Of a DNA stretch of 40,716 nucleotides, positions 1,536 through 40,716 are shown one piece after another. Made by a program: the position numbers and the translations under genes. How positions within the stretch are numbered: the first letter of the stretch is position 1; each line of letters opens with the position of its first letter. The notes under the pieces are model-generated. The model had not been told where the DNA came from and did no database searches. It saw only the letters and a list, made by a program, of their open reading frames with translations. The DNA lies in NCBI RefSeq assembly GCF_001270265.1, contig NZ_LGAP01000046.1, positions 1 through 40,716 of the forward strand, in the 5' to 3' direction. The stretch is from Ensifer adhaerens (GTDB lineage: Bacteria > Pseudomonadota > Alphaproteobacteria > Rhizobiales > Rhizobiaceae).

Positions 1536-1913
1536 CGTCCGCCTTGATCCTTGCCGCTGACCCCCGTGGCGGCAGATGCTTATTCAGTCATTCACCGAGG
1601 GGGAAGGGGGCTCGCAAACACCGCGATGATCTCCCATGCTCCAGCACGACGCCGAACAAAAATAGACCCATAAAAGTTGATTGATTTTCGGCTGCAAGAT
1701 CGCCAAAGTGGTGGGGTAGAGCACAGCTCGTCCGCTTCAAGTCAAAAATGAGCTAAGCCGCGAACGAGGCAGTATTTCGGTGCTCCGACACTATACCGAT
1801 AGACATTTGCAAGACGAAAACAAAAACAAAAAATGGGCCCCAGCATGTACAGCTAGGGCCATTTTTTTATGGGGCGCACCGGCACGAGCCGATGACGCCG
1901 CCAAAGGCGATCA
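1536..1913. other. Intergenic region, 378 bases
   Basis: It lies between the end of the siderophore operon (1914) and the start of the beta-propeller gene (1535), both on the minus strand. It contains the terminator-like hairpin at 1833-1868 and presumably the beta-propeller promoter. I see no convincing small gene. Confidence 0.6.
1833..1868. terminator. Bidirectional rho-independent terminator after the siderophore operon
   Basis: An imperfect stem pairs atgg/ccc/agc on the left with gct/ggg/ccat on the right around an atgtaca loop. It is followed by seven T on the plus strand and preceded by an A-run (AAAAACAAAAAA), so a U-tract forms in either direction. It lies 46 bases past the asbF stop codon and should end the minus-strand siderophore transcript. 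Confidence 0.75.
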
Positions 1914-2759
1914 CTAAAAGTTGACTGTTCTGCGAACGGGCTCACGCCCCTCGATCACGCGGCGAAGCTGCCTGCGATCGCGGCGCAGGATATCGAGGCA
2001 ATCATTGCCGAACCATTCCAGCGATGCATCGGGCTGGCCGTCGCCCGCGATCTCCAGGAGAAAACCGACATAATCGACCGTGCCTTCGAACAACGGCGTC
2101 ATGCCGTCGCGGCGGCCGGCTGCGGCATAGACGTTTGCCGGCTCGAAAACCGAGAGGTCCGACCGGTCGTGAATGTTCTTCAGGTGGTAGTGGCGGATGT
2201 GCGGCTTCATCTGGCGATGCACGACGATGGGGTCGTCGCCGCCCTCCCAGACGTGGAGCGTATCGAAGTTGATCGCAAAGGCGGGATGAGCGACTTCCTC
2301 GATGAGACGCAATGTCGAGGATGCGGTATCGGCCAGCGTCTTCGGATGTGTCTCCGCCAGCAGTTGAATGCCATAGCCAGCGGTGATTGCGCATATCTCC
2401 TTCAGCCGCTCCACGATCCGTTGCCGCTCTTCATCGGAGACGGAGAGGCTGCCGCAATTGCCGGCGAAGGTGCGGATCTTGCGGGTTCGCCAACGGCGGG
2501 CGAGCCTGCAGAGTTCGACGGTCTTGTGCCTGAGCGTCTCCGGATCGCCGTCGAGCGGCAAGTAGTCGCTGATCATCGGCACCTTCAGCCCAAAGGTGTC
2601 GAGCCAATCGGCATTGCGGTCGGGCTGTTGCGCCAGGTTGCGCGCATGCGCGCCCCAAAGCTCGATGCCCTGGAAATCGTTCGACTGAGCCCAGGCGGCG
2701 ATTTCGCCGAGCGAAATCAGATGATGGCGGAACGTGATCGTGCACAGCGATATGTTCAT
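1914..2759 (-). CDS. asbF: AsbF-like 3-dehydroshikimate dehydratase (281 aa)
   Basis: A sugar-phosphate isomerase/epimerase-type TIM barrel that tracks Bacillus AsbF motif by motif: MNISLCTITFRHHLIS, FQGIELWGAHARNL, MISDYL, KIRTFAGNCGS, LLAETHPKTLADT, INFDTLHVWE, HYHLKNI, VFEPANVYAAAGRRDGM, ASLEWFG. The conserved Glu, Asp and His residues of the metal site (ETHP, NFDTLH, HYHLKN, SLEWFG) are present. In petrobactin synthesis this enzyme converts 3-dehydroshikimate to 3,4-dihydroxybenzoate, the catechol donor. The start overlaps the stop of the upstream asbDE gene as ATGA (2756-2759), indicating translational coupling. It is the last gene of the operon. Identification rests on recalled motifs, not on an alignment I could run. 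Confidence 0.92.
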   Translation of the reverse strand: MNISLCTITFRHHLISLGEIAAWAQSNDFQGIELWGAHARNLAQQPDRNADWLDTFGLKVPMISDYLPLDGDPETLRHKTVELCRLARRWRTRKIRTFAGNCGSLSVSDEERQRIVERLKEICAITAGYGIQLLAETHPKTLADTASSTLRLIEEVAHPAFAINFDTLHVWEGGDDPIVVHRQMKPHIRHYHLKNIHDRSDLSVFEPANVYAAAGRRDGMTPLFEGTVDYVGFLLEIAGDGQPDASLEWFGNDCLDILRRDRRQLRRVIEGREPVRRTVNF

Positions 2760-4081
2760 CGCGCAACCCTTTTCAGCATGGGCCTCTTCAGCATGGAAAT
2801 GTCAGCGGCAATGTTCTGCTCGCACCAGAGATCGAAGATCTCCGCCAGCTTGCCTTTCAGCTTCCGCTCGATGCGGTCGGCTTCCGCCAGCCGCTCGAAA
2901 ACCGGGGCTGCCAATGCGCGGTCGCCGGTCTGGCTCAGCTTCATGCAGTCGTAGTGCAGCGTTTTCAACGCCTGGACGAGCGCCTCGATCTCTTCGCACC
3001 AGCCTTCGAACTCGGCCGCCGGCAGTTTCAACGCCCGCCAGAAGAAGGCAAAGCCGTGCTCGTAGGCATATTTGCGGATGGTGATGACGGGCAGCTCGCG
3101 CACAGCCTCCGCCAGGTCCGAGAGGTCGATGCCGCCGGGTCCCTCGAGATGAGCCATGACGATCGCGCGCATGGCGTCGGCCAGCGGATTGTTGTCCCTG
3201 ATGAAGCAAGCTTCGAAATAGGCCCTGAGGTCTTCGGCGGCGGGGGCCCGCGCCTCGGCATTGTCGAAGACATAACCGCCACCGACGGTCGGTTGCATGA
3301 TCGCATGGATCACCTTTTCCCGGGCGATCTCGCCCTCCCAACGGTAATCGGGATCGTGCACGAACCACGTGTCGGGATCGGCGGTTTCCTGCAGCATGAG
3401 GTAATGCGGGAAGGGGTTCTGGTTGAACTTGTTCTCGCGCTCCGGCAGGTGGAACATGTCGAGCATGACCATGACGGAACCGGTTTCGGAGCGCCGGCTG
3501 ACGAGATCGAGCAGTACAGCGAGGTTGTCGCTCTTGCTGATCTCAGGGTCATACCATTCGCGCACGGTGACGCGGTATAGCCGCTCAAACCAGCTTCGGA
3601 AGAATTCCTGGCTGATCTCGGGTGCGTGATAAAGAAGCTGGAAGCGGTCGCTGAGGGCAAATTTCGCATCCCAGACCCCGAAGTAGAACGGTCGGTGATC
3701 GAGGCCCTGGCGCTTTAGCCCGTCGCAGACGCAACTGACGAAGCAATGCACCTTGATGTCGTAATAGGCCTCGCCATGCACGCCTTCGTCGGTCGTGCCG
3801 CCGGTCAGCGGAAACGACGGGACCACCGTTGCAGCAACCTTCGGTTCATAGAGCGCGGCGAGGTCGGCGACGGTCTGGACATCCTGCCGGGCGATCGCTT
3901 CTTCAGGAACGCTCAGCCCATACTCCAGCTCCAGATTGAGAAAGATCTGCAGGATCAGGACGGAATCCAGATAGAGGTCCTCGTTGAGGCGAGCTTGCGG
4001 ACCGAAGCCGTCGAGATGCGGATGCATCATATGCTCGCTGAGGACCTTGTGGATTGCTTCCAGGGTTTCGTTGCTGGTCAT
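2756..4081 (-). CDS. AsbD-AsbE fusion: carrier protein plus 3,4-DHB transferase (441 aa)
   Basis: Residues 1-80 form an acyl/aryl carrier domain with a phosphopantetheine site LNEDLYLDSVLI (Ser40). Residues from about 95 to the end (from 'GEAYYDIKVHCFVSCVCDGL') correspond to the AsbE condensing enzyme, which in Bacillus passes 3,4-dihydroxybenzoate from holo-AsbD to a spermidine amine. In Bacillus these are two proteins; here they share one reading frame with a short linker (YEPKVAATVVPSFPLTGGTTDE). The frame stays open further upstream to 4237, but the ATG at 4081 overlaps the ligase stop (ATGA, 4078-4081) and starts the carrier fold, so that start is chosen. The fusion fixes carrier and transferase at 1:1 and should channel the aryl group. 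Confidence 0.88.
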   Translation of the reverse strand: MTSNETLEAIHKVLSEHMMHPHLDGFGPQARLNEDLYLDSVLILQIFLNLELEYGLSVPEEAIARQDVQTVADLAALYEPKVAATVVPSFPLTGGTTDEGVHGEAYYDIKVHCFVSCVCDGLKRQGLDHRPFYFGVWDAKFALSDRFQLLYHAPEISQEFFRSWFERLYRVTVREWYDPEISKSDNLAVLLDLVSRRSETGSVMVMLDMFHLPERENKFNQNPFPHYLMLQETADPDTWFVHDPDYRWEGEIAREKVIHAIMQPTVGGGYVFDNAEARAPAAEDLRAYFEACFIRDNNPLADAMRAIVMAHLEGPGGIDLSDLAEAVRELPVITIRKYAYEHGFAFFWRALKLPAAEFEGWCEEIEALVQALKTLHYDCMKLSQTGDRALAAPVFERLAEADRIERKLKGKLAEIFDLWCEQNIAADISMLKRPMLKRVAR

Positions 4082-5358
4082 GACGCCGCTCCAGCGATCG
4101 GTTTGCTGAATTCGCCGGCGGTGTGCCGGGCGGCAACCTCGCGGCGGCTGATCTTGCCGTTCGCCTGGCGCGGGATGGCATCGACCTGGCGGATATCCAT
4201 CGGCAGCTGATGGCTGGCGAGGTGCTGACTGCACCATTGGCGGATCGCTTGCGGTGCAATGGCTTCGTCGGCGCTGAACAGCAGCGCCACGCGTTCGCCG
4301 GCAAAGCGGTCGCCGATGCGGAAGGCAACGGCATCGCTGACGCCGGCCATCGCCATCACCGCATCCTCGACATCCCGGGGATAGACGTTGAGACCGGAGA
4401 CATTGATCATGTCGTCCAGCCGCGACACGAAGACCAGCATGCCGTCATCGCGGCGGTAGCCGAGATCGCGGGTGTGGATGGCGATGCCATCGGCCTTCGC
4501 CACGACGATCTCGCCCGTATCCTCGGCACTGCTTCCGGTTTGCGGGAGAAGATGCGGCAGCACGAACCCCACGTCTCCGGCGGCAGTGACATCCGGATTG
4601 ATCGCGATGCATCCGGCTTCGGAGCAGCCATATTGCTGGAACATGTGCCGGCTCTTGGCCCTGATCTGGGCAAACCAGGGATCCGGCAGCAACGTGCCCG
4701 ACGTCATCGTCGCATGGATCTGCTCGCCCTCGGGCAGGAGCCGGGCAAGCGTGTGCAGGATCGCCGGCGAGGAATAGAGCAGCGGCCGCTCGACCTCGCG
4801 CAGAACCTTCATGAGATATTTCGGATTGGCCGTGTTGACGACCACCGGCGTCTGATCGCGTTTGAGCGCCACCAGGATGCCGCAGATCAGGCCATAGGAA
4901 TGGGTGGTCGGGCAGGCGACGACCGGGGTCATCTCAGCCGGTTCGCGGAAGGTGGTGATATAGCTTTCGATCTCGGCGTCGATATCCTGCCAGCTTCGCA
5001 CCACGCATTTCGGCGCTCCTGTCGTGCCCGAACTCATCTGCAGGAGCGTGCCGACGGGTGAGGCGTTCGCCGGTCGTTCCAGCACTTCGGCCGTCAGGCT
5101 GTTGTAGAACAGCCGGTCGCAGCCGGCGCCGATCGCAAGCTTGCGCGCGGCGGCATAGGGCGTGCCGGGGTGGATTGGCAATACGCTGGCGCCGGCCTTG
5201 CGGATGGCGAAGAACAGCGCCAGCCAGTCGGCGGTGTCGGCACAGCAGACCGCATAGCGTCCGTTGTCGCGGTCTTTCAGGCCGATCTGCCCGGCCAGGC
5301 GTGCGGATGTTTCGTCGAAATAGGCGCGATCATAGAGCCTGTCGTCGATACGGATCAT
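4078..5358 (-). CDS. asbC: AsbC-like 3,4-dihydroxybenzoate-AMP ligase (426 aa)
   Basis: An adenylate-forming ANL-superfamily enzyme. The ATP-binding loop is LQMSSGTTGAPK (about residues 106-117), followed by YGCSEAG and the hinge region LGYRRDDGMLVFVSRLDDMINVSGLNVYP. The C-terminal catalytic lysine lies in QANGKISRREV. It should activate 3,4-dihydroxybenzoate with ATP and load it on the carrier domain of the next gene. At 426 residues it is short for the superfamily, as AsbC is. It overlaps the upstream NIS synthetase by ATGA (5355-5358) and the downstream asbDE by ATGA. Confidence 0.9.
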   Translation of the reverse strand: MIRIDDRLYDRAYFDETSARLAGQIGLKDRDNGRYAVCCADTADWLALFFAIRKAGASVLPIHPGTPYAAARKLAIGAGCDRLFYNSLTAEVLERPANASPVGTLLQMSSGTTGAPKCVVRSWQDIDAEIESYITTFREPAEMTPVVACPTTHSYGLICGILVALKRDQTPVVVNTANPKYLMKVLREVERPLLYSSPAILHTLARLLPEGEQIHATMTSGTLLPDPWFAQIRAKSRHMFQQYGCSEAGCIAINPDVTAAGDVGFVLPHLLPQTGSSAEDTGEIVVAKADGIAIHTRDLGYRRDDGMLVFVSRLDDMINVSGLNVYPRDVEDAVMAMAGVSDAVAFRIGDRFAGERVALLFSADEAIAPQAIRQWCSQHLASHQLPMDIRQVDAIPRQANGKISRREVAARHTAGEFSKPIAGAAS

Positions 5359-7094
5359 GGCTTTCTCCTTCGTTGAAGCTTGTCCGCGGCGAGCGCATTG
5401 GGCACCGCGTGGTGGTACTCCGGCTTGCGCGCGAAGAGCTTCCTCGTCATCAGGGATTCGGTGAGAATTTCCGGCCTGTCGTGGCCGAGCTGAGCCTGCC
5501 TGCCAATCATGCCGTGCTTGTGCGGATAGGATGACAGCAGGCTCTCGACCCGCTGCCAGAACAGCGGCTCATCGAGGGCGTAGCAATGGGCGAGAAGATG
5601 GCTGATCTCGCTCAGATTGTAGACGAACAGGGTGTCCATCACCAGTTCGCGCAGCGAGTCCAGATTGTCCGTCCAGTAGAACTGGTCCGGCTCGGCATCC
5701 TGGTAGAGCGGATCCAGGGATAGAAAATCGGGTGTCTTTTCCGGTTCGCGCAGGAAGCCAGGCGAGAATTCGATGCTCTCGTGAAAATCCCGCAGGATCA
5801 GCCGTACCGGCCATCCGTCGCGGTGCACGAGCAGCATGTTCTGGCCATGCGCCTCGACGGCTATGCCGTGATAGACGAGCAGATGCCAGACGGGTAGGAC
5901 GGCGACCTCGATCAGCCGGTTGATCCAGGGCATCAGCCCGAAGCGCTTGATCCAGTCGTCGGCAAAGGGCCGTCCGTCCGTCTCCATCATCATGAGCGCG
6001 GTAAAGGGAACGACCGCTTCTCCGGCTTCGAGCGTTGCCCGCGCGCTCTGACGCCAGATCGCCCCGACCTGCCCTGCCAGCGGCTCCTCGGCATCGGCGA
6101 TAATCCCGGCATATTCCTGCAGAATGGTCAGGGGATATTGTTCGCGGAACAGTGGGTCCGAAGCGACGATCTCGCCGATCCAGCGCGAGATGACCGGAGC
6201 GGTGCAGACCGAATGTGGCTCCAGGGTGCGCCGAGAGGACGTGTTGACGATGTTGAGCGGCAGCTTGACGCTGGCGGCGAGCGGCCGATCCCGGTCGAGC
6301 AAAGAGCGCACCGACTGTGTGGCGGTGTAGTGGTCGCCGGCAGGGCCGAGGCAATGGGCTTGCCCGGCTGAGATCCAGCGGACAAGGAGCGTCTCGCTCA
6401 GATTGCGCCACTGCCACGGATGCAGGGGCACGAGCCCGAAATCGTCGGCGGAGAGACCAAGCTGCTGCTGCATGCCTTGAAGATGCGCCCAGGTCTCCTC
6501 GCCAAGTTCAGCTTTCCAGAACGCCTCTTCGTTGTCGGGCAACGCCTGGCGCAGATGCTTGCGGGCAACGAGCAGCCAGACGAGCTGAAACGACTGGCCG
6601 GCCTCCGGGCCGAAGAAAGCATGGTCGGCATGGGAGAAGCCGGTGCGGGCCTTGTAGCAGGGGTGGTAGGGATGCCCCTCGTCAATGGCACCTTCGAGCT
6701 CGGCAAAGGACATTTCCCGCCGGGGACGGGCGATAAGATGGCGGTCGTTCCACTCGGAAAAGGCAATCGTCTGCTTCATCTCATTCAGCAGCTTTCCCCG
6801 GGTGATGCCGGTGCCGGGAAGGGCCGAAACCACAAGCGAGAGCGAAGCTTCGCCCCAGCAGCCGTCGCTCGTGCGCATCTGCACCGATCCCGGCAACGGG
6901 CGGATTCGCCCGAATGCGCCGAGGATGGCGTCGCACTGAAACTCGCGGCCGCCGAGCGTCCAACAAAAATGCGTCGCGCCATCGCCGCCCTCGCTCCGAT
7001 GCGCCGCGATGACGCCTTCGAACAGAAGGGCGGCGACAAGCTGGCGAAGCACCCGGTCGTCGGCGCGCCCCTTGATTTCAAGAGGCAATGGCAT
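5355..7094 (-). CDS. asbB: AsbB-like NIS siderophore synthetase (579 aa)
   Basis: An IucA/IucC-family ATP-dependent synthetase that joins a citrate carboxylate to an amine. Family motifs are present: GFSHADHAFFGPE, LVPLHPWQWRNL, KLPLNIVNTSSRRTL (ATP/citrate site) and VEAHGQNMLLVHRDGWPVRLILRDFHES. By position in the operon it is AsbB, which in Bacillus adds the second spermidine arm to the citryl intermediate. It starts 17 bases inside the end of the upstream asbA gene (overlap 7078-7094), again suggesting coupled translation. Substrate specificity (spermidine or another polyamine) cannot be read from the sequence. Confidence 0.9.
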   Translation of the reverse strand: MPLPLEIKGRADDRVLRQLVAALLFEGVIAAHRSEGGDGATHFCWTLGGREFQCDAILGAFGRIRPLPGSVQMRTSDGCWGEASLSLVVSALPGTGITRGKLLNEMKQTIAFSEWNDRHLIARPRREMSFAELEGAIDEGHPYHPCYKARTGFSHADHAFFGPEAGQSFQLVWLLVARKHLRQALPDNEEAFWKAELGEETWAHLQGMQQQLGLSADDFGLVPLHPWQWRNLSETLLVRWISAGQAHCLGPAGDHYTATQSVRSLLDRDRPLAASVKLPLNIVNTSSRRTLEPHSVCTAPVISRWIGEIVASDPLFREQYPLTILQEYAGIIADAEEPLAGQVGAIWRQSARATLEAGEAVVPFTALMMMETDGRPFADDWIKRFGLMPWINRLIEVAVLPVWHLLVYHGIAVEAHGQNMLLVHRDGWPVRLILRDFHESIEFSPGFLREPEKTPDFLSLDPLYQDAEPDQFYWTDNLDSLRELVMDTLFVYNLSEISHLLAHCYALDEPLFWQRVESLLSSYPHKHGMIGRQAQLGHDRPEILTESLMTRKLFARKPEYHHAVPNALAADKLQRRRKP

Positions 7095-8862
7095 GGCTTG
7101 TCCTCGAGACAGTCAGCGCTGCCGGTGCCCTTAAAGGGTTTGGCACGGGTCGATAAAGGATCGGCGCGTGGTCGGATTGCAGTTCGTCGACATTGAACAG
7201 CCGGGTGGTCAGGTTGGCTTTGGAGGCGATCGTCGGCAGGTCCAGGACGTGCCGGGCGAAGTCGCGTCCAGCGCCAGTCATCCCGAATGCGCATTGCTCC
7301 AGGTGGTTCCGGAGCACCCGCAGAAGGCTGCCTTCATCGCACAATCCGTCGTGGCCCATGCGGCTGATGACGGAGAAGACCTGGTTGACGATGAGGTAGT
7401 AAGCGAAGCGGTCGCGGATTTCACTTTCGGGGAAATAGAGCGACGGGATCGTCTCGGTTTCCGGAACGTGGCTCGCCAGAAGGCTGCGATAGCGTTCGGA
7501 GAGGTAGAATCCCTGATTGTCGCGGTAGTAACTGACCGATGGGTAGCCGGCGCCGATGTCGAGCAGGCTGTTTTGTTGGTGCGCTTCGAGTGCGATGCCG
7601 TAGTCGTCGTAGAGCCGGATCAGCGGTTCGACTGCGCATTCGAGATACCGTTGGAACCAGGCGATGCAGACGTCGGCGAGAGGCTGTCGATTCCTGGTGG
7701 CGAGTGTGCGCAGGAGTTTTTCAAGCCTCGATGGTGCCTGCGGAAGAGGGTCTGCCGTCAGCGCCGCCAAGGTTATGACGCCCTGTCCCTTGCCATGGGC
7801 GAAAGGGTTTTCGCGCAGGATGACTTCAAAGCCGCTCTCGCTGTGGCCCGGCCGATCGAGCGCGATATAGGCCGGGTCTTGGATGATCCTAAAATTTGCC
7901 GAGCGCTTGGCAAAACCGATCCGGTCGATCAGCTTGGCCATCGCGACGCCCGCCTCCAGCTCCTGCCTTCGGTTCAGCCGGACGGAATTGGTAATGCGCA
8001 CCGGCAACGAAAACTTGAGCATCCAGTCTTCCGCAGCGCCATAGACCGTGCGGACGGACGACGTTGCGCTGAAGAGTGAACCGGCCGGACCCAGGTGACG
8101 CAGGATGCCCGCCCGTTGCATCGCCTGAATGCCGGGGTCGAGCAGCAAGGCTTCCGCCTGCAGCGGGTGCATCGGTAGCAGGCATTCGTCGCCGGCAAGA
8201 CCCAAGCCTTCCGCTTCGAGCCCTAAAAGCGAGCGGACGATCTCGGGCGCCGGTGTCGGGCGGGAGGACGCGTGACTGACGTGGTCCATCTTCGCTGCGA
8301 AATAATGCAGCTTGAACTGGCCGCGCAGTTCGGGCGCATAGCTCTCCTGTTGCCAATAGGTCATGCCCTGCCGGCTCTTCGGCGTCGGGTGCAGCCAGTG
8401 CCCGAAGACAAGCGACTGCTCGGCCTCGAGAAACTCGCCTGCTCCCTCCGGATCCGGCAGCGCCTTGTCGATATAGAGGGCGGTCTGCTGATAGCTTTCG
8501 AGCACCCGGATCAGTAGCTCCAGTTCGAAGCCACGCAGCGCCTCCGTCTGGCCGGCATCGTCCTGGCGATAGGCGGCCTGGACCAGCATATGCAGCGCCG
8601 ACATCAGCTCGATCGGCCGCCAGGATGGATCGGAGACATTGCGCCCCCATGCCCTGCCGAAATGAAGCGGACCGCAAACGGACGATGAGGTGACCTCGAC
8701 GCGCAGGATCATTTGCTGGCGGGGAAGCGACCATTCGATGCTGTCGCAGGATCCGCCGGCGGTCCGGTGCATGACCGGGACGCCGGGATTGACCTCCCTG
8801 AGATAGCAGTTGGCGAAGCTTTGAAATGTCGCAGTTTCTGCGATTTGCCTAGACGATTTCAT
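7078..8862 (-). CDS. asbA: AsbA-like NIS siderophore synthetase (594 aa)
   Basis: The first gene of the operon. It shares AsbA hallmarks: MKSSRQIAETATFQSFANCYLRE at the start, FGHWLHPTPKSRQGM, LLPMHPLQAEALL, KFSLPVRITNSVRLNRRQELE, SGFEVILRENPF, ALEAHQQNSLL, YYRDNQGFYLSE and KANLTTRLFNVDEL. In Bacillus, AsbA condenses citrate with spermidine. The frame extends 10 codons upstream to 8892, but the ATG at 8862 has GAGGA about 8 bases upstream and matches the Bacillus N-terminus, so it is preferred. No exporter, TonB receptor or ABC uptake genes are next to the operon. Confidence 0.9.
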   Translation of the reverse strand: MKSSRQIAETATFQSFANCYLREVNPGVPVMHRTAGGSCDSIEWSLPRQQMILRVEVTSSSVCGPLHFGRAWGRNVSDPSWRPIELMSALHMLVQAAYRQDDAGQTEALRGFELELLIRVLESYQQTALYIDKALPDPEGAGEFLEAEQSLVFGHWLHPTPKSRQGMTYWQQESYAPELRGQFKLHYFAAKMDHVSHASSRPTPAPEIVRSLLGLEAEGLGLAGDECLLPMHPLQAEALLLDPGIQAMQRAGILRHLGPAGSLFSATSSVRTVYGAAEDWMLKFSLPVRITNSVRLNRRQELEAGVAMAKLIDRIGFAKRSANFRIIQDPAYIALDRPGHSESGFEVILRENPFAHGKGQGVITLAALTADPLPQAPSRLEKLLRTLATRNRQPLADVCIAWFQRYLECAVEPLIRLYDDYGIALEAHQQNSLLDIGAGYPSVSYYRDNQGFYLSERYRSLLASHVPETETIPSLYFPESEIRDRFAYYLIVNQVFSVISRMGHDGLCDEGSLLRVLRNHLEQCAFGMTGAGRDFARHVLDLPTIASKANLTTRLFNVDELQSDHAPILYRPVPNPLRAPAALTVSRTSHAIAS

Positions 8863-9414
8863 GTCTGTCGATCCTCGGCACGCGACATGCAAAGTCGCGC
8901 AATCGCGTCGCGTGGGAGGCGCAACGCATCGAATTTTCTTAGTGAACGGGCTTAGGTCGGCGCGACATGTGTCACGCTCTGTCTGTCAGCCGCCAGTGGA
9001 GGCGGATGGGATTGGCGCAGGATCTGGTCGGCTGGCAGCCTGCGGGCAGAGGCGATGTGTTTCGGCGCACTAACCTGCGAGGCTATGAACGCAAATGCGC
9101 GGGTTGCCACAATTCTAGAGGGAAACGGACCAATGTGGCCACGTTCCCCTGCAAACGGCAGACGTCCGTTACGGCATTCCGGTGAGCTCATCTTCCACCC
9201 GTCTCGGCTTTCGGCGCGGTGCTTCAACATGCGCTTTCAAACAAAGACGACCGGCTCCGGATTTTTTTTCACGGATCGCGGAATTTTTTATGATTATTAT
9301 TGTCCAGTTAAATTCCTGTCGCGTCGTCCCCCAAGTATACGGGTGCCGGACCGCACGTGGCGGCCGCCGGGGCGGGTGTAGCGATGATGCCTTCGGGCAG
9401 GTCGTTTTGCCGTG
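8863..9414. other. Intergenic region upstream of the siderophore operon, 552 bases
   Basis: This should carry the asb promoter and regulator sites. A small hairpin (cgcgac 8881-8886 with gtcgcg 8894-8899) falls in the expected 5' leader of asbA. An A/T-rich patch at 9258-9315 lies near the araC stop codon. I looked for TGA-N9-TCA (RirA-type iron box) and Fur/Irr-like palindromes and found none I would defend. No gene is apparent. Confidence 0.5.
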
Positions 9415-10245
9415 CTAGCGAAGATGGAGGGCGCGCTGGAATTCGGCGGGCGTGCGCCCATAGGCCTGTTTGAAGGACGCACTGAAATGGCTGTGGCTGG
9501 AAAAGCCGAGATCGAGGCCGAGTGCCGTCAGGTCATGGCAGGAGCCGAGCAGATCTAGCGCACGCGCAAGCCGCAGCCGCAACTGATAGCGGTAGAGTGG
9601 CATGGCTTCGACCTGTTGGAAAACCTGAGTGAGATAGACGGGCGACACGCCGACTTCCGTTGCCACCTCGGCCAAGGTCCAACGGCGGGCAAGATCGGTC
9701 GAAAGAACCAGCTTCGCCCGATCGACGAGCTTCTCGCGCCCATAGGTCGAGGCAGCACTGTGCGATGTCCTCTCACCGAGCGAACGCCGGATCAGTGTCA
9801 GCGTCAGGGTCTCGGCTTCGAGCGTTTCGGCAATCCCGCGATGAAGGCTATAACGCAACAGGGCGACAAGCGCCTGCGCCCGTGGATCGATGCGCCGGCG
9901 CGGTCTCTTGAACGAAACGAGCGTGCCGACGCGCAGTTGCTCCTTCGGCGCAAGTTCGCAGAGGATGGCTTCGTCCACCTGCACGTCAAGGCAGGCATCG
10001 CCGCCTTCGATCGGGTGGCTGACGCGATAGTCTTCGCTGCGATTGAAGAAGATCACCTGATTGGATTCAGCCACGGTGTCGGCCTTGCCCACATGCCGCA
10101 TGAAGACGCCGCGATAGGGATAGACGAGGCTTGTGCGGTGGCTGCATTCCTCGCCGCTTTTGCCACGGCACGCGCCGTCGCAGACCACCTCCCGAAGCGA
10201 GGCGGTGGAGGTGTCGAGAAGCGTCTGGCACGAAAATTGGGACAT
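9415..10245 (-). CDS. AraC-family regulator, probable siderophore-operon activator (276 aa)
   Basis: The C-terminal ~100 residues are a classic AraC double helix-turn-helix (RRWTLAEVATEVGVSPVYLTQVFQ, then LGLDLGFSSHSHFSASFKQAYGRTPAEFQ). The N-terminus is a cupin-like sensor containing three cysteines in REVVCDGACRGKSGEECS. The ATG at 10245 (MSQFSCQTLL) is taken rather than the upstream codon at 10305. It is the nearest regulator to the asb operon, in the same orientation and about 550 bases upstream. AraC regulators next to siderophore genes (RhrA in Sinorhizobium, PchR, YbtA) typically activate them under iron starvation, sometimes with the siderophore as ligand. That role here is inferred from context only. 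Confidence 0.85.
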   Translation of the reverse strand: MSQFSCQTLLDTSTASLREVVCDGACRGKSGEECSHRTSLVYPYRGVFMRHVGKADTVAESNQVIFFNRSEDYRVSHPIEGGDACLDVQVDEAILCELAPKEQLRVGTLVSFKRPRRRIDPRAQALVALLRYSLHRGIAETLEAETLTLTLIRRSLGERTSHSAASTYGREKLVDRAKLVLSTDLARRWTLAEVATEVGVSPVYLTQVFQQVEAMPLYRYQLRLRLARALDLLGSCHDLTALGLDLGFSSHSHFSASFKQAYGRTPAEFQRALHLR

Positions 10246-10252
10246 CGCGGCC

Positions 10253-10507
10253 CTATTCGTCGCGTTTGTAGAAATCGTTATAGGCGGCCCCACGCGGCAG
10301 GCCAATATCCTTCAGTTGATGATCCGAAAGCGCAAGCAGGTCCAGACGCCCGCGCCGCGTGACCATCCAGCGGGAAAGCCGCGCAAACAGCCGCCAGGGA
10401 AAACCGCGTGTTTCGTGTGCGGCCGAAGCCGCAAATCTCTCCCGCGGGGCGATCAGCCGTGGGGAGACATAGATCAGGTTGCCATGGGATGAAGCTGTGT
10501 CCGACAT
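10253..10507 (-). CDS. DUF1127 (YjiS-like) small protein (84 aa)
   Basis: The C-terminal half has the DUF1127 pattern: RLSRWMVTRRGRLDLLALSDHQLKDIGLPRG. Longer Arg-rich members of this family in alphaproteobacteria have been linked to RNA turnover and phosphate or stress physiology; the function of this one is unknown. The ATG at 10507 has AAGGGAGA about 7 bases upstream, which itself follows an alternative ATG at 10525. It ends 7 bases before the araC start, so the two genes are probably co-transcribed. The motif at 10567-10590 lies upstream. Confidence 0.85.
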   Translation of the reverse strand: MSDTASSHGNLIYVSPRLIAPRERFAASAAHETRGFPWRLFARLSRWMVTRRGRLDLLALSDHQLKDIGLPRGAAYNDFYKRDE

Positions 10508-12016: not shown

Positions 12017-12931
12017 TTGCTCGGCACGGCATTTCCACGCGAAGTGTTTTGGCGTTCGGTGGTCTTTGTCTGTCTGTTGGTTGGGTCCATGTTATCGGCC
12101 GCGACGGTTCGCGCATCGCAGACGGACGGCGCCGACATGCGGTTCTTCGTCGTTCGCAGCGGCCAGCCGGGCTGCGAGCCGACCTGTCCCGAGTGGATAT
12201 CTGCAGAGGGCACGATCGTTGACGAAAGTCCGGCGCGCTTCAAGAGGTTGCTTAAGTCCATCGGCAACCGACGCCTGCCGATCGTGGTGACGTCGCCGGG
12301 CGGAGACGTCGATGCTGCGATGGCGATCGGGCGCATGATCAGAGCGCGAAAGCTTGAAGTTGCGGTCGGCAAGACCCGCTTCATCGGTTGTCAACCCGAG
12401 CAGCAGGATTGCAGTGACAACGACGGCAAAGGCGCCCGCCACATCGGCATCGCCTATTCCGGCGAAGCCTATTGCAACTCGGCTTGTCCGTTGCTGCTTG
12501 CCGGCGGCACCCGGCGCGTGGTCGGCGAGTGGGCATTTCTGGGCGTGCACCAGATCACCACAACTTACGTTCAGACGGAGACGCAATATCGGACGAAATA
12601 TCGTGTCGTGAACGGCAAGAAGAAGATGACCAGCAAGAAAGTCGTCAGCCGCAGGAATGTCGGCGGCTACAAGACCTATGAGATGAGCAGGGAGACCGAG
12701 CGCAAGCTGGCGGCCTATCTCGCGGAAATGGGCGTCGGTCGGTCCGTCATCGATCTGATGAAGATCACGCCCGCTGCCGACATTCGCAAGATCGAGCCCG
12801 TCGCGATGTTGGAAATGAAGCTGACGACCAAGCTGGGTGGGGTCGAACTGCTGACCTCGGTCGAGGCTTGCAGAACGGTGCCGGCAGCCGCCAACTGTCG
12901 CGTGTTCGTGATGTCGGACTTGGAGCGTTAG
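12017..12931 (+). CDS. Exported ClpP-fold protein, COG3904-like, active-site Ser present (304 aa)
   Basis: A hydrophobic segment (VVFVCLLVGSMLSAATVRAS, about residues 15-34) is a signal peptide or anchor. Then come the oxyanion-type motif VTSPGGDVDAAMAIGRMI and the nucleophile motif YCNSACPLLLAGGTRR (Ser155), followed by LGVHQ (His178), a typical serine/histidine arrangement for periplasmic ClpP/SppA-like proteins of this group. Conserved Cys pairs (CEPTC, CQPEQQDC) probably form disulfides. A Lys/Arg-rich insertion follows the His. The start is TTG with a strong GGAGGAGGT upstream; the later ATG at 12089 would cut into the signal peptide. Substrate unknown. A paralogue follows 26 bases after the stop. 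Confidence 0.75.
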   Translation: MLGTAFPREVFWRSVVFVCLLVGSMLSAATVRASQTDGADMRFFVVRSGQPGCEPTCPEWISAEGTIVDESPARFKRLLKSIGNRRLPIVVTSPGGDVDAAMAIGRMIRARKLEVAVGKTRFIGCQPEQQDCSDNDGKGARHIGIAYSGEAYCNSACPLLLAGGTRRVVGEWAFLGVHQITTTYVQTETQYRTKYRVVNGKKKMTSKKVVSRRNVGGYKTYEMSRETERKLAAYLAEMGVGRSVIDLMKITPAADIRKIEPVAMLEMKLTTKLGGVELLTSVEACRTVPAAANCRVFVMSDLER

Positions 12932-12957
12932 ATCCGCGGATCTGGATGGAGATAGGG

Positions 12958-13740
12958 ATGTTCGTATGGAGTCCCGCTGCCGACAAGACCCTGCCCCGTC
13001 TGCGAAGGGTGGCGCTGCTGACTTGCCTGGCGGCCTCAAGCATATTGATCCAACAGCCGGCAATGGCGGCAGACGAGCAGATGCGTTTCGTCGTTGTGCG
13101 CTCGAGCCAGGCCGGTTGCGAGCCGACATGCACGGAATGGATTTCCGCCGAAGGGATGATCGGCCCCAGAACGCCGACTTTGCTGAAGGCGACGTTGAGG
13201 ACGCTCGGTGACCGCAAGCTGCCGCTGGTCCTTACATCGCCTGGTGGTGACATGGCCGCTGCCATGGCGATCGGCCGCCTTATCCGCAGGAATGGGCTCG
13301 GCGTGGCCGTCGGCATGACGGTTTTTGAAGGATGTGAGCCGGATGACGAGGGATGCCGGGAAAACGATAACAGGGGCGCGGACTATGTCGGAGAGGCGGT
13401 TTCGGAAGGACGATGTGCGCATGCATGCGCTCTGGTTCTGGCCGCCGGCGTTCGACGGCTCGCGGGCGATGGAACGGCCGTCGAGGATATTCCGATCGGA
13501 GCTGCCAGCGAGGCCGGCACCAAAAAGCTGGTGGCGTACTACGGCGAAATGGGCGTGCGACATCAGGTCCTGGTCGAAGGCCTCCGTGACGAGGACGGCA
13601 ATCTCGGTCATTGGCAATTGTTCAAGGCGCTTCTGGTGACGAGCACGCTCGCAGTCGACCAACTGGTCGATGCACAAATCTGTCGGGGCACGCCCGCGCC
13701 CGACAATTGCCGGGTCTTCACCACGATGGACCTGGAGTAG
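12958..13740 (+). CDS. Exported ClpP-fold paralogue lacking the catalytic serine (260 aa)
   Basis: It has clear sequence kinship with the preceding gene: MRFVVVRSSQAGCEPTCTEWISAEGMI, LVLTSPGGDMAAAMAIGRLI, CEPDDEGC and PDNCRVFTTMDLE. The nucleophile motif reads RCAHACALVLAAGVRR: the serine at the equivalent position is His155. The LGVHQ histidine and the basic insertion that follows it are replaced by a short unrelated segment. It is therefore probably catalytically dead. A signal peptide runs to MAADEQ. The ATG at 12958 is chosen because GGAG stands 6 bases upstream. Tandem order suggests co-expression with the intact copy. Confidence 0.78.
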   Translation: MFVWSPAADKTLPRLRRVALLTCLAASSILIQQPAMAADEQMRFVVVRSSQAGCEPTCTEWISAEGMIGPRTPTLLKATLRTLGDRKLPLVLTSPGGDMAAAMAIGRLIRRNGLGVAVGMTVFEGCEPDDEGCRENDNRGADYVGEAVSEGRCAHACALVLAAGVRRLAGDGTAVEDIPIGAASEAGTKKLVAYYGEMGVRHQVLVEGLRDEDGNLGHWQLFKALLVTSTLAVDQLVDAQICRGTPAPDNCRVFTTMDLE

Positions 13741-37162: not shown

Positions 37163-38368
37163 TCAACGCGGCGCGACCTGGCAGGCAATCGCCCAGACGA
37201 AGCCAGACAGTTCACGGGCAATCGCCGTCGTTACGGTCGTGGCCGGCTTTCCGGCCTTCGTGAGCTTTCGATAGCGACGGCACAGCCGCTCCTGCGCTTT
37301 CCATGCCGTGTCGCGGATCGTTTTTGGGAGCTGCTCCTGGCGCAGCAATTGTTCGCGGCTGATCCTTGCGGGAAACCGGTAACTCCATGCCGCTTCAATC
37401 AGCATTCGACGTGCTGTTGTGTTCCCTGCTTTGGTGATTCCACCCTGACGTCGAGTTCCGCCGCTCGAATGCTCCGATGGTACAAGCCCCAGATAGGCCA
37501 TGAGTTGACGAGGATTTGTAAAGCGACTGAGATCGCCGAGTTCGGCAATCATCGTGGCAGCCGTCACCAGAGCCATGCCGCGCAACGACTGCAGGGCGTG
37601 CACGACGGGTGCCAACGACCAGTCGGTCAACATCATCTCGATTTGTTTCGTTAACCGATCCCGCCGGTCGGTTGCAGCCTCGATCGTCGCGATATGATCT
37701 TCGAGCACAATGTGGTGGATTGGTTGCTCGAAGCGAAGGCCTGCCAGCCAACGGCGGTGCATCTGCGTCCAGGCTGGACGGCCATAATGGCAGCCATGAC
37801 GCAGTAGAAACCCGCTGAGCTGCTGGCGAGCCTGCCGCAGACTACGCACGGCAGCCAAGCGCGCCCGAACCAGATCGCGCATCGCCTCATGGGCGGGATC
37901 GGGGATCCAAACCGCGCTCAGTTCCCCAGCGCGATGAAGCCTTGCCAGATTGTTGGCATCTCGACGGTCTGTCTTGATGCGATCGCCCGGCTTTCGAGGG
38001 ATCAAAGAGGGAGCGACGACCACGCAGTCATGACCTGCGGCAGACAGCTGCCGCTGAATGCCATAGCCGCAGGGGCCTGCTTCGTAGCAAAACTTCAGCG
38101 TCCGCCCTGGCTGCAACAGCTTCGACAGCATACGCGCCAGAGCTGCAGGGGTATTTACGATTTGGCCGAATGCACGCACGTCGCCGCGCCCCCCGCCATC
38201 GGCAAGTGCCACCGCGATCGTCTCTTTGTGAACATCCAAACCGACATACGTGATACTATCGTCCATGGCCCGTCTCCTATGCATGAGGCTCTGTGCGAGG
38301 ATAACTTACGCAACCCTCGATACCTGCATATTGTGAGACGGGTCACCCGGTCCCAGGCGAACATTTAG
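36915..38368 (-). mobile_element. IS110-family insertion sequence (approximate limits)
   Basis: The transposase lies at 37163-38266. Limits are estimated: weakly matching inverted segments cgtcctggg (about 36916) and, read from the other strand, cgcctggga (about 38358) may be subterminal repeats. IS110 elements lack classic inverted repeats and carry a guide ('bridge' or 'seek') RNA in a non-coding end. Here the downstream flank, about 240 bases, is the longer one. Confidence 0.45.
37163..38266 (-). CDS. IS110-family transposase (DEDD recombinase, 367 aa)
   Basis: The N-terminal DEDD domain has ITYVGLDVHKETIAVALADG (Asp11), KFCYEAGPCGYGIQRQL (Glu62) and RIKTDRRDANNLARLH (Asp100, Asp103). The C-terminal Transposase_20 domain has LRGMALVTAATMIAELGDLSRFTNPRQLMAYLGLVPSEHSSGGTRRQGGITKAGN, including the essential serine region. 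AGGAGACGGGCC precedes the ATG at 38266, so the six extra upstream codons are not used. Full length with no frame breaks, so it may be active. Confidence 0.97.
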   Translation of the reverse strand: MDDSITYVGLDVHKETIAVALADGGGRGDVRAFGQIVNTPAALARMLSKLLQPGRTLKFCYEAGPCGYGIQRQLSAAGHDCVVVAPSLIPRKPGDRIKTDRRDANNLARLHRAGELSAVWIPDPAHEAMRDLVRARLAAVRSLRQARQQLSGFLLRHGCHYGRPAWTQMHRRWLAGLRFEQPIHHIVLEDHIATIEAATDRRDRLTKQIEMMLTDWSLAPVVHALQSLRGMALVTAATMIAELGDLSRFTNPRQLMAYLGLVPSEHSSGGTRRQGGITKAGNTTARRMLIEAAWSYRFPARISREQLLRQEQLPKTIRDTAWKAQERLCRRYRKLTKAGKPATTVTTAIARELSGFVWAIACQVAPR

Positions 38369-39872: not shown

Positions 39873-40613
39873 CCGCCAATCCGTCAACTGCGGCATTGGC
39901 GCATGCATGCCGCCCATCATCCGCGAAGGTTCAGCGTTGGCCGCTGATTGGATACGCCGTCCGGAGCTGGCGCGACCTGTGGGTTCAGGCAGGGTGCCCG
40001 CGAGCAATCACCAGGTTTCGGGCACTTCCACCAATACCGACCGCCGCTGTGTATTCCCCGTCCAGGCCAATCGTCGCACGCAGCACTTCGGTCGTACCGG
40101 GATCGTGGTCCGCGGTTTGTGACCGGAAGCGCGTTCAGCACGGAGTGGCGGCCCTGCGCCCAATCAATGACCAAGCTGCCGCGGCAGCCAGATTCTGCGG
40201 CTTGAGGATTGCCACAAACGCCATCGCCGCGGGGCTTTGGTCATGCCGGTGGGCTGCCGTGGCAGCCATCTCGCGTCTCGCAAACTGGCCGGCTTCGCGT
40301 CGTTCGTGGCGCCTGGCACGCCTAATGCTTGTCGCGCAAAAGTGTGCAGCGTTTTTGCGATAACGACATGCGCAAAAACAAGAACTTAAAGTGCGGCAAG
40401 CGAATCCTAGAGATCGCGACGCGCTTTAAGAGTGGTGGCGCCCGCTATGGCGGCGATTGAGACACACTCACCTTCTTCCGCGGGAAAAGTTGGCGCCAGT
40501 CGGAATTTTAAACTTGACTATTATGCACATGTTTTCAATTTTACGCCCCGTTCGCGCAAAGCGATAACCGCGGACGAACCCGCTCCCGGCTAGCAGCCTG
40601 TCGGACTTAACAT
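39873..40613. other. Non-coding stretch, 741 bases
   Basis: No gene with a plausible start and ribosome binding site. A minus-strand open stretch of about 40 codons ending at 39985 has protein-like composition (TTEVLRATIGLDGEYTAAVG) but no start codon and could be a gene scrap. The right part contains the palindromic repeat at 40331-40431. Confidence 0.4.
40331..40431. repeat. Rhizobium-type palindromic intergenic repeat
   Basis: It contains gtttttgcg (40351-40359) paired with cgcaaaaac (40371-40379), followed by an imperfect second inverted repeat (aaagtgcg... with ...gcgacgcgcttt). I recall this kind of sequence as widely dispersed between genes in Rhizobium and relatives. Only one copy is in the window. 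Confidence 0.55.
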
Positions 40614-40716
40614 CTACAGCTTTTCGTCAGGGATGTAGGGGATAAGGCCGTTATCGAATGCGAGCTGCTGGACTTGTCTGGGAGCATTGCGGACGTCGAT
40701 GATGAACCCGTTGATT
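40614..40716 (-). CDS. C-terminal end of a DUF6398-like protein, cut by window edge
   Basis: The minus frame from the edge reads NGFIIDVRNAPRQVQQLAFD, then NGLIPYIPDEKL and a stop at 40614. 'VNGFxxDxRxxPREIQExAxxKGLIPYIP' is the ending I associate with DUF6398-type proteins of unknown function. Only 34 codons are visible. Confidence 0.5.
   Translation of the reverse strand, partial: INGFIIDVRNAPRQVQQLAFDNGLIPYIPDEKL

What the first reader, a model, noticed from the sequence alone, without database searches (positions are those of the whole stretch)
1914..8862. Complete petrobactin-like siderophore operon in a rhizobial background
Five genes in the Bacillus asbA-asbB-asbC-asbD-asbE-asbF order encode every biosynthetic activity needed to join citrate, polyamines and 3,4-dihydroxybenzoate. 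Motifs are directly visible for each. Rhizobia are better known for rhizobactin 1021, vicibactin and similar hydroxamates, so a 3,4-catecholate/citrate siderophore here would extend their repertoire. The product could be petrobactin or an analogue with another polyamine, such as homospermidine, which many rhizobia make.
Basis: partly seen in the sequence, partly recalled or inferred. Interest (0 to 1): 0.75.

Follow-up and report, generated by a model that had tools for sequence, protein, structure and literature searches.

The report
Siderophore operon parted from its receptor
This Ensifer-like bacterium carries five overlapping genes predicted to build a petrobactin-like iron-scavenging molecule, directly behind what is likely the leftover front end of a lost receptor gene, and a matching promoter pattern in front of a second receptor set suggests that this other set likely now controls and serves the pathway.

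Summary
In detail: window 1914-8862 (minus strand) is an intact five-gene asbA-asbB-asbC-asbDE-asbF operon of the petrobactin family, with asbD and asbE fused. The claim that this would be new for rhizobia does not hold: asb operons occur across Rhizobiaceae, and the Sinorhizobium fredii one was studied genetically in 2022; term searches of two S. fredii papers found no mass spectrometry, so the polyamine linker is open. What is unusual lies upstream. In 9 of 16 genomes of this genus the operon follows fecR-fprA-DUF2218. In this window and six sister genomes these genes are not beside asb, but the fprA promoter, leader and first codons remain and now front asbA. A different, divergent fecI-fecR-fprA set lies 23-33 kb away in five relatives and on what is likely the next contig here. 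A 30-base FecI-type promoter pattern occurs 38 times in the 16 genomes, always before fprA, fecR or asbA. Biosynthesis and receptor were therefore likely separated but kept under one switch. In this isolate an insertion just upstream of fecI2 may have damaged that switch. The product chemistry and the control are untested.

The parts
7078..8862 (-). asbA, NIS synthetase (594 aa)
   Evidence: IucA_IucC and FhuF domains; together with asbB, asbC and asbDE in 78 of 80 named loci
5355..7094 (-). asbB, NIS synthetase (579 aa)
   Evidence: PDB AsbB 3to3, E 2e-100
4078..5358 (-). asbC, aryl adenylation enzyme (426 aa)
   Evidence: AMP-binding domains; PRK08308 above cut-off
2756..4111 (-). asbDE, aryl carrier domain fused to DUF6005 condensing domain (451 aa)
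   Evidence: DUF6005 498.7 bits; AsbD model 73 bits, below cut-off 100
1914..2759 (-). asbF, 3-dehydroshikimate dehydratase (281 aa)
   Evidence: PDB AsbF 3dx5, E 2.7e-75, aligned over residues 1-265
1836..1860 (-). terminator-like hairpin with T tail after asbF
   Evidence: 9 pairs, 7 of them G-C; such matches are no more frequent in the region than in shuffles (5 against a mean of 6.2), but this one lies at the operon end
9242..9271 (-). FecI-type promoter pattern left over from fprA, now before asbA
   Evidence: perfect match to the 30-base pattern that marks fprA, fecR and asbA in 38 of 38 hits; block conserved in the 7 clade loci, window included
9291..9305 (-). GGA-N9-TCA, one base off the RirA operator TGA-N9-TCA
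   Evidence: GGA-N9-TCA at the same place in the 7 clade loci; NGA-N9-TCA before fprA in the relatives aligned
8952..9191 (-). remnant of the fprA start, continuing as an open frame (79 aa) to just before asbA
   Evidence: N-terminus matches FprA of S. fredii and clade I; open in 7 of 7 clade loci, window included
9415..10305 (-). AraC-type regulator upstream; role in the operon unproven
   Evidence: HTH_18; beside asb in 6 of 7 clade genomes, window included, absent there in L022/L100
40448..40593 (+). DNA that in Ensifer sp. LC163 directly precedes fecI2
   Evidence: 95.9% identical to L147 13681-13536
40590..40716 (.). end of an insertion that likely separates fecI2 from its native upstream DNA
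   Evidence: 18-base inverted match with the head of contig C54, where fecI2 starts

Best explanation
The window holds an intact five-gene asbA-asbB-asbC-asbDE-asbF operon predicted to make a petrobactin-type siderophore, placed behind the promoter and first codons of what was likely an adjacent fprA receptor gene, since deleted, and likely switched on in trans by a second fecI-fecR-fprA module that lies 23-33 kb away in five relatives. Predicted chemistry: AsbF makes 3,4-dihydroxybenzoate from 3-dehydroshikimate; AsbC activates it and loads it on the carrier domain of AsbDE; the DUF6005 domain would pass it to a polyamine; AsbA and AsbB would join the arms to citrate. Predicted control: the ferric siderophore enters by FprA2, FecR2 releases the sigma factor FecI2, and FecI2 transcribes fecR2, fprA2 and asb; RirA would block the same promoters when iron is plentiful. 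Shown here: the genes, the remnant, the second module and the shared promoter pattern. Inferred: the deletion, the control, the transport and the product. In this isolate an insertion just upstream of fecI2 may weaken the control.
For: Families and structures. In 9 of 16 genus genomes fecR, fprA and the DUF2218 gene directly precede asbA; in the other 7, this one included, they do not. The 552 bases between araC and asbA hold a block 76-78% identical to the promoter, leader and first codons of fprA in the four relatives aligned (154 bases at 77.9% against S. fredii L023), and a second block matching the DNA just before asbA in such species. The remnant matches the lost type of fprA far better than the genome's own fprA2 (121 against 34.6 bits). 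fecI2-fecR2-fprA2 lies on contig C54, whose end matches the base next to the window's last matched base in LC163; 23.0-33.2 kb separate the promoters in the five relatives with both on one contig (positions). Pattern TGARAAAAA-N12-TCGTCWTTG: 3 perfect hits in this 7.46 Mb genome, before asbA, fprA2 and fecR2; with up to one mismatch 38 hits in 16 genomes, 16 before fprA, 15 before fecR, 7 before asbA, all 7 in this clade, reversed control 0. In S. fredii FecI binds the fecR and fprA promoter regions by ChIP-qPCR, and a rirA fecI double mutant makes nearly undetectable siderophore (PMC8822346, passages). asbA shows the codon-position pattern of a selected gene in a crude ungapped count over 5 clade loci (0.12, 0.07, 0.31).
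Against: The pattern was built from two of the sites it then found, and orthologous sites in related genomes are not independent; only the fecR2 site and the lack of other sites are fresh. In this isolate an insertion lies within 10 bases of the fecI2 start and cuts it off from its native upstream DNA, so FecI2 may be silent or expressed differently here. The join of the two contigs is inferred. That FprA2 carries this siderophore is not shown: it is only 73% identical to S. fredii FprA. The trees do not prove that FprA2 came from outside: an asb-like topology is not rejected (AU p 0.088). No close relative of S. fredii FatB is in the genome; the nearest is 41% identical. In 13 named loci of other lineages, such as Neorhizobium, a promoter of this type also stands directly before asbA, and no fprA remnant was found there by BLAST.
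Confidence: 0.74

Rival explanations
1. Ordinary rhizobial petrobactin operon whose receptor simply moved: the present fecI-fecR-fprA set is the old one, relocated within the replicon.
For: Both lie within 23-33 kb on one contig in five relatives; the AU test does not reject an asb-like place for FprA2 (p 0.088).
Against: The remnant before asbA resembles fprA of other species (121 bits) much more than the genome's own fprA2 (34.6 bits); FecI2 and FecR2 are only 57-61% identical to the nearest of the three reference sets used, those of S. fredii and Pararhizobium.
Confidence: 0.2
2. The operon answers mainly to the neighbouring AraC regulator (9415-10305), as rhizobactin genes answer to RhrA (recalled), and the FecI-type site is a relic.
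For: AraC lies directly upstream in the same orientation in 6 of 7 clade genomes, window included; fecI2 has likely lost its native upstream DNA in this isolate.
Against: AraC is absent beside asb in L022/L100, where the promoter block is kept; the RhrA model scores 23.2 against a cut-off of 500; the promoter block is kept in all 7 clade loci, while the former fprA frame falls from 92% mean identity in its first 30 columns to 63-74% in the next 210.
Confidence: 0.12
3. The operon is decaying: receptor lost, switch damaged, siderophore no longer made in this isolate.
For: Insertion upstream of fecI2; in the sister E. canadensis an IS110-type transposase gene sits between asbB and asbC; fprA2 is split into two frames in G006.
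Against: All five asb frames are open in the window, and asbA shows far more change at third than at second codon positions (0.31 against 0.07, crude count over 5 loci).
Confidence: 0.2

Closest known systems
S. fredii CCBAU45436 fprA-c14010-asbABCDEF-fatBDCE (PMC8822346, passages seen)
   Same: Same asb genes in the same order; in S. fredii USDA 205 asbD and asbE are likewise one frame (L023, 82% for AsbDE), and the same FecI-type promoter pattern stands before fprA and fecR
   Different: There fecIR, fprA and c14010 (by position the DUF2218 gene) precede asb and fat follows; here they are absent beside asb and only the fprA promoter and start remain
Bacillus petrobactin asbABCDEF
   Same: Same six activities in the same order; AsbB and AsbF match the solved proteins
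   Different: asbD and asbE fused here; Gram-negative receptor and sigma-factor control
Rhodopetrobactin (Rhodopseudomonas) and methylolanthanin (Methylobacterium) clusters (PMC11317620 passages; PMC13251462 abstract and passages)
   Same: asbDE fusion; alphaproteobacterial hosts; homospermidine linkers there, and a homospermidine synthase is encoded here
   Different: No linked acetyltransferase here; the nearest GNAT is 48% identical and elsewhere in the genome; mllBC is fused in Methylobacterium, asbB and asbC are separate here
Aerobactin and rhizobactin 1021 clusters (rhizobactin from recall)
   Same: Citrate-based, NIS synthetases
   Different: Hydroxamates; aerobactin IucC scores under half the bits of AsbB (150.6 against 340.2)

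Membership tests
Petrobactin-type (asb) biosynthetic cluster | Two NIS synthetases, one of AsbB type | tested here: met
   AsbB 3to3 2e-100 against IucC 5.4e-43
Petrobactin-type (asb) biosynthetic cluster | AsbC-type adenylation enzyme | tested here: met
   AMP-binding; PRK08308 554.9 bits over cut-off 513
Petrobactin-type (asb) biosynthetic cluster | Aryl carrier AsbD | tested here: inconclusive
   AsbD model 73 bits under cut-off 100; PP-binding 17.1 under 20.8; LDS attachment motif visible in the sequence (motif recalled)
Petrobactin-type (asb) biosynthetic cluster | DUF6005 condensing enzyme AsbE | tested here: met
   498.7 bits, cut-off 25
Petrobactin-type (asb) biosynthetic cluster | AsbF dehydratase making 3,4-dihydroxybenzoate | tested here: met
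   Homology met: 3dx5, 2.7e-75 over 265 residues; activity not tested
Petrobactin itself | Two spermidines and two 3,4-dihydroxybenzoates on citrate | not testable with these tools
   Linker cannot be read from sequence; both homospermidine synthase and carboxyspermidine dehydrogenase relatives are encoded
Rhizobial fprA-asb gene cluster | fprA and DUF2218 gene directly upstream of asbA | tested here: not met
   Only the fprA start and promoter remain; nearest FprA on contig C54, nearest DUF2218 relative 42% identical on C22
Rhizobial fprA-asb gene cluster | FecI-type promoter upstream of the operon | tested here: met
   Perfect match at 9242-9271; function not tested

The most novel reading that the evidence does not exclude
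A receptor exchange: this Ensifer clade threw out the receptor that came with its petrobactin-type pathway, took a divergent fecI-fecR-fprA set, and held the two parts together through a shared sigma-factor promoter, perhaps because its siderophore (with a homospermidine linker) or the threats that use the old receptor had changed. The old receptor's start may persist as a translated leader of the biosynthetic operon.
Probability: 0.3. Interest if true: 0.65.

Novelty: new variant of a known kind. Interest (0 to 1): 0.45.

Why it matters
Siderophore genes and their receptor are usually read as one lock and key in one cluster, and cluster-based annotation assumes it. Here a clade of seven genomes offers a natural case in which the key was kept and the lock was likely exchanged, with a promoter pattern as the link that is left. 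It gives a clean way to test how producer and receptor change together, and which receptor a cluster search would miss. It also shows that the 'petrobactin' of rhizobia rests on gene similarity, mutants and a general colour assay in the S. fredii papers that I searched, so the molecule itself is worth determining.

Tried and rejected
New siderophore type for rhizobia: rejected by literature. Methylolanthanin-like or acetylated product: no linked acetyltransferase. Another NIS pathway in the genome: the AsbB search finds only asbA and asbB at E up to 0.001. FprA2 shown to be foreign by tree: not shown, AU p 0.088. Remnant frame as a functional protein: open in 7 of 7 clade loci with indels of 60, 24, 12 and 9 bases, but second codon positions vary almost as much as third (0.27 and 0.29), so not claimed. 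RND pump near fprA2 as exporter: an AcrB-type pump with a ChrB-like gene lies there; no evidence for siderophore export. Paper searches bearing on this split arrangement listed no paper that describes it, judged from listings and, for PMC10538136, from one passage; most papers of subscription journals are not held. Dropped rows: ten genus loci that duplicate named records (L099-L101, L103-L106, L108, L110, L113) were left out of the asb tree, leaving 84 loci with four genes, window included, of which 35 were used. Receptor trees used 34 and 33 rows (Oceanimonas L087 dropped in the second; G006, whose fprA2 is split, in neither). My first look for mass spectrometry in PMC8822346 used whole-word matching, which cannot match the cut term; it was repeated and again found none.

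Full report
What is there. Window 1914-8862 on the minus strand encodes five overlapping genes in the order asbA, asbB, asbC, asbDE, asbF. Domain and structure matches agree with the petrobactin assignment; asbA is the least direct, its best solved relative being IucA (5.4e-44). asbD and asbE form one frame; the carrier part scores below the curated cut-offs but keeps the LDS motif. The DE fusion is not peculiar to this genome: it is reported for rhodopetrobactin, roseobactin and methylolanthanin (PMC11317620, passages), and the S. fredii protein is fused as well (L023).

How common it is. The asbE family PF19468 is in 16 of 16 genomes of the genus searched and in 0 of 45 other genomes sampled from the family and order. 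A scan of named genomes found 150 loci that encode an AsbDE relative, of which 80 were kept: Ensifer, Rhizobium, Neorhizobium, Shinella, Aminobacter, Mesorhizobium, Methylobacterium, Azospirillum and others. The asb operon is therefore patchy but not new for rhizobia. PMC8822346 (passages) described it in S. fredii, with RirA repression and FecI activation; siderophore was measured there by the CAS assay, and term searches for mass spectrometry, HPLC and LC-MS in that paper and in PMC12815270 found nothing. In the main text of the InverSIL paper (PMC13251462, abstract and passages) no word begins with rhizob or Ensifer.

What is different here. In the gene-order table 63 of 80 named loci have an fprA-type receptor gene in the stretch held. 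These 7 form one clade in the asb tree (7 rows, SH-aLRT 100). Between the upstream neighbour and asbA their DNA still holds the fprA promoter, leader and first codons, and near asbA the DNA that follows the DUF2218 gene elsewhere. Since other lineages (S. fredii, Pararhizobium, Shinella, Aminobacter) have the genes in place, loss in this clade is the simplest reading.

The second receptor module. A search with S. fredii FprA finds in this genome one close relative, on contig C54, 74% identical (two other matches are partial and at most 35%), with its own fecR2 and fecI2. The 7 clade genomes all have it away from asb; in G006 it is split into two frames. The end of C54 and the window's right end match adjacent bases of LC163, so C54 likely follows the window. 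FprA2 forms a clade of its own (100/100; 6 rows, G006 left out), but an asb-like topology is not rejected (p 0.088). The remnant before asbA is nevertheless closer to fprA of S. fredii than to fprA2, so the lost gene and the present one are likely different lineages.

The shared promoter. The pattern TGARAAAAA-N12-TCGTCWTTG was read from the remnant and from fprA2. In this genome it has 3 perfect hits, before asbA, fprA2 and fecR2, and 2 more elsewhere with two mismatches; the reversed control has none. In 16 genomes with up to one mismatch there are 38 hits: 16 before fprA, 15 before fecR, 7 before asbA, none elsewhere, control 0. In G003 the fecR2 site was not found at that stringency. In the 80 named loci there are 46 hits in 33 loci, 18 before asbA, 15 before fprA, 13 before fecR, reversed control 0; 47 loci have none. 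Of the 18, 5 are this clade and 13 are loci of other lineages in which asbA comes first. S. fredii FecI binds the fecR and fprA promoter regions in ChIP-qPCR. A RirA-like GGA-N9-TCA ends 19 bases upstream of the pattern in the window; fprA2 has TGA-N9-TCA. The reading of the pattern as a FecI-type promoter is my inference.

A complication in this isolate. Within ten bases of the fecI2 start, C54 departs from the sequence shared by the five relatives compared, and both contig ends carry an 18-base inverted match. An insertion element has likely entered there, cutting fecI2 from its native upstream DNA. Whether fecI2 is silent, or driven from the element, is unknown.

Chemistry. AsbF aligns with the solved 3-dehydroshikimate dehydratase over 265 residues. 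The genome encodes a homospermidine synthase (4plp, 1.9e-240) and a relative of carboxyspermidine dehydrogenase (8deb, 6.7e-98). The linker could be either polyamine. AsbB is 54% identical to that of Rhodopseudomonas infernalis (L085). I lean slightly to homospermidine, untested.

Verdict. The separate point, a biosynthetic operon left behind the promoter of its lost receptor and likely run by another receptor module in trans, is a new variant of a known kind.

Noticed in passing
window 40590-40716 and contig C54 13310-13433 of the same genome: An insertion with 18-base inverted ends likely separates the sigma-factor gene fecI2 from its native upstream DNA, within 10 bases of the start codon; the five relatives compared lack it.
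   Followed up: partly
window 8952-9191: The fprA remnant continues as an open frame of 79-99 aa in 7 of 7 clade loci (window included) with indels only in multiples of three, yet codon positions show little protein constraint.
   Followed up: partly
L102 12793-13950: In E. canadensis an IS110-type transposase gene sits between asbB and asbC.
   Followed up: partly
L030, L035-L037, L039, L041, L045, L051, L068-L070, L071, L073, L074, L076, L080, L082, L083, L085, L086, L091, L095: 22 of 80 named asb loci show no match to the window's AsbF over half its length (L071 ends just after asbDE); the source of their aryl acid is unclear.
   Followed up: no
G000 contig C22 86030-87301: A DUF2218 gene (42%) lies next to a FatB-like binding protein gene (41%). 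A FatB-like gene of about 40-42% is in 16 of 16 genus genomes and a DUF2218 relative lies beside it in 10 of 16.
   Followed up: no
window 37163-38284: IS110-type transposase gene in a stretch of about 1.5 kb that is missing in the otherwise matching DNA of relatives.
   Followed up: partly
window 12017-12931 and 12868-13740: Two consecutive, similar-looking proteins without any Pfam match at E up to 0.001.
   Followed up: no
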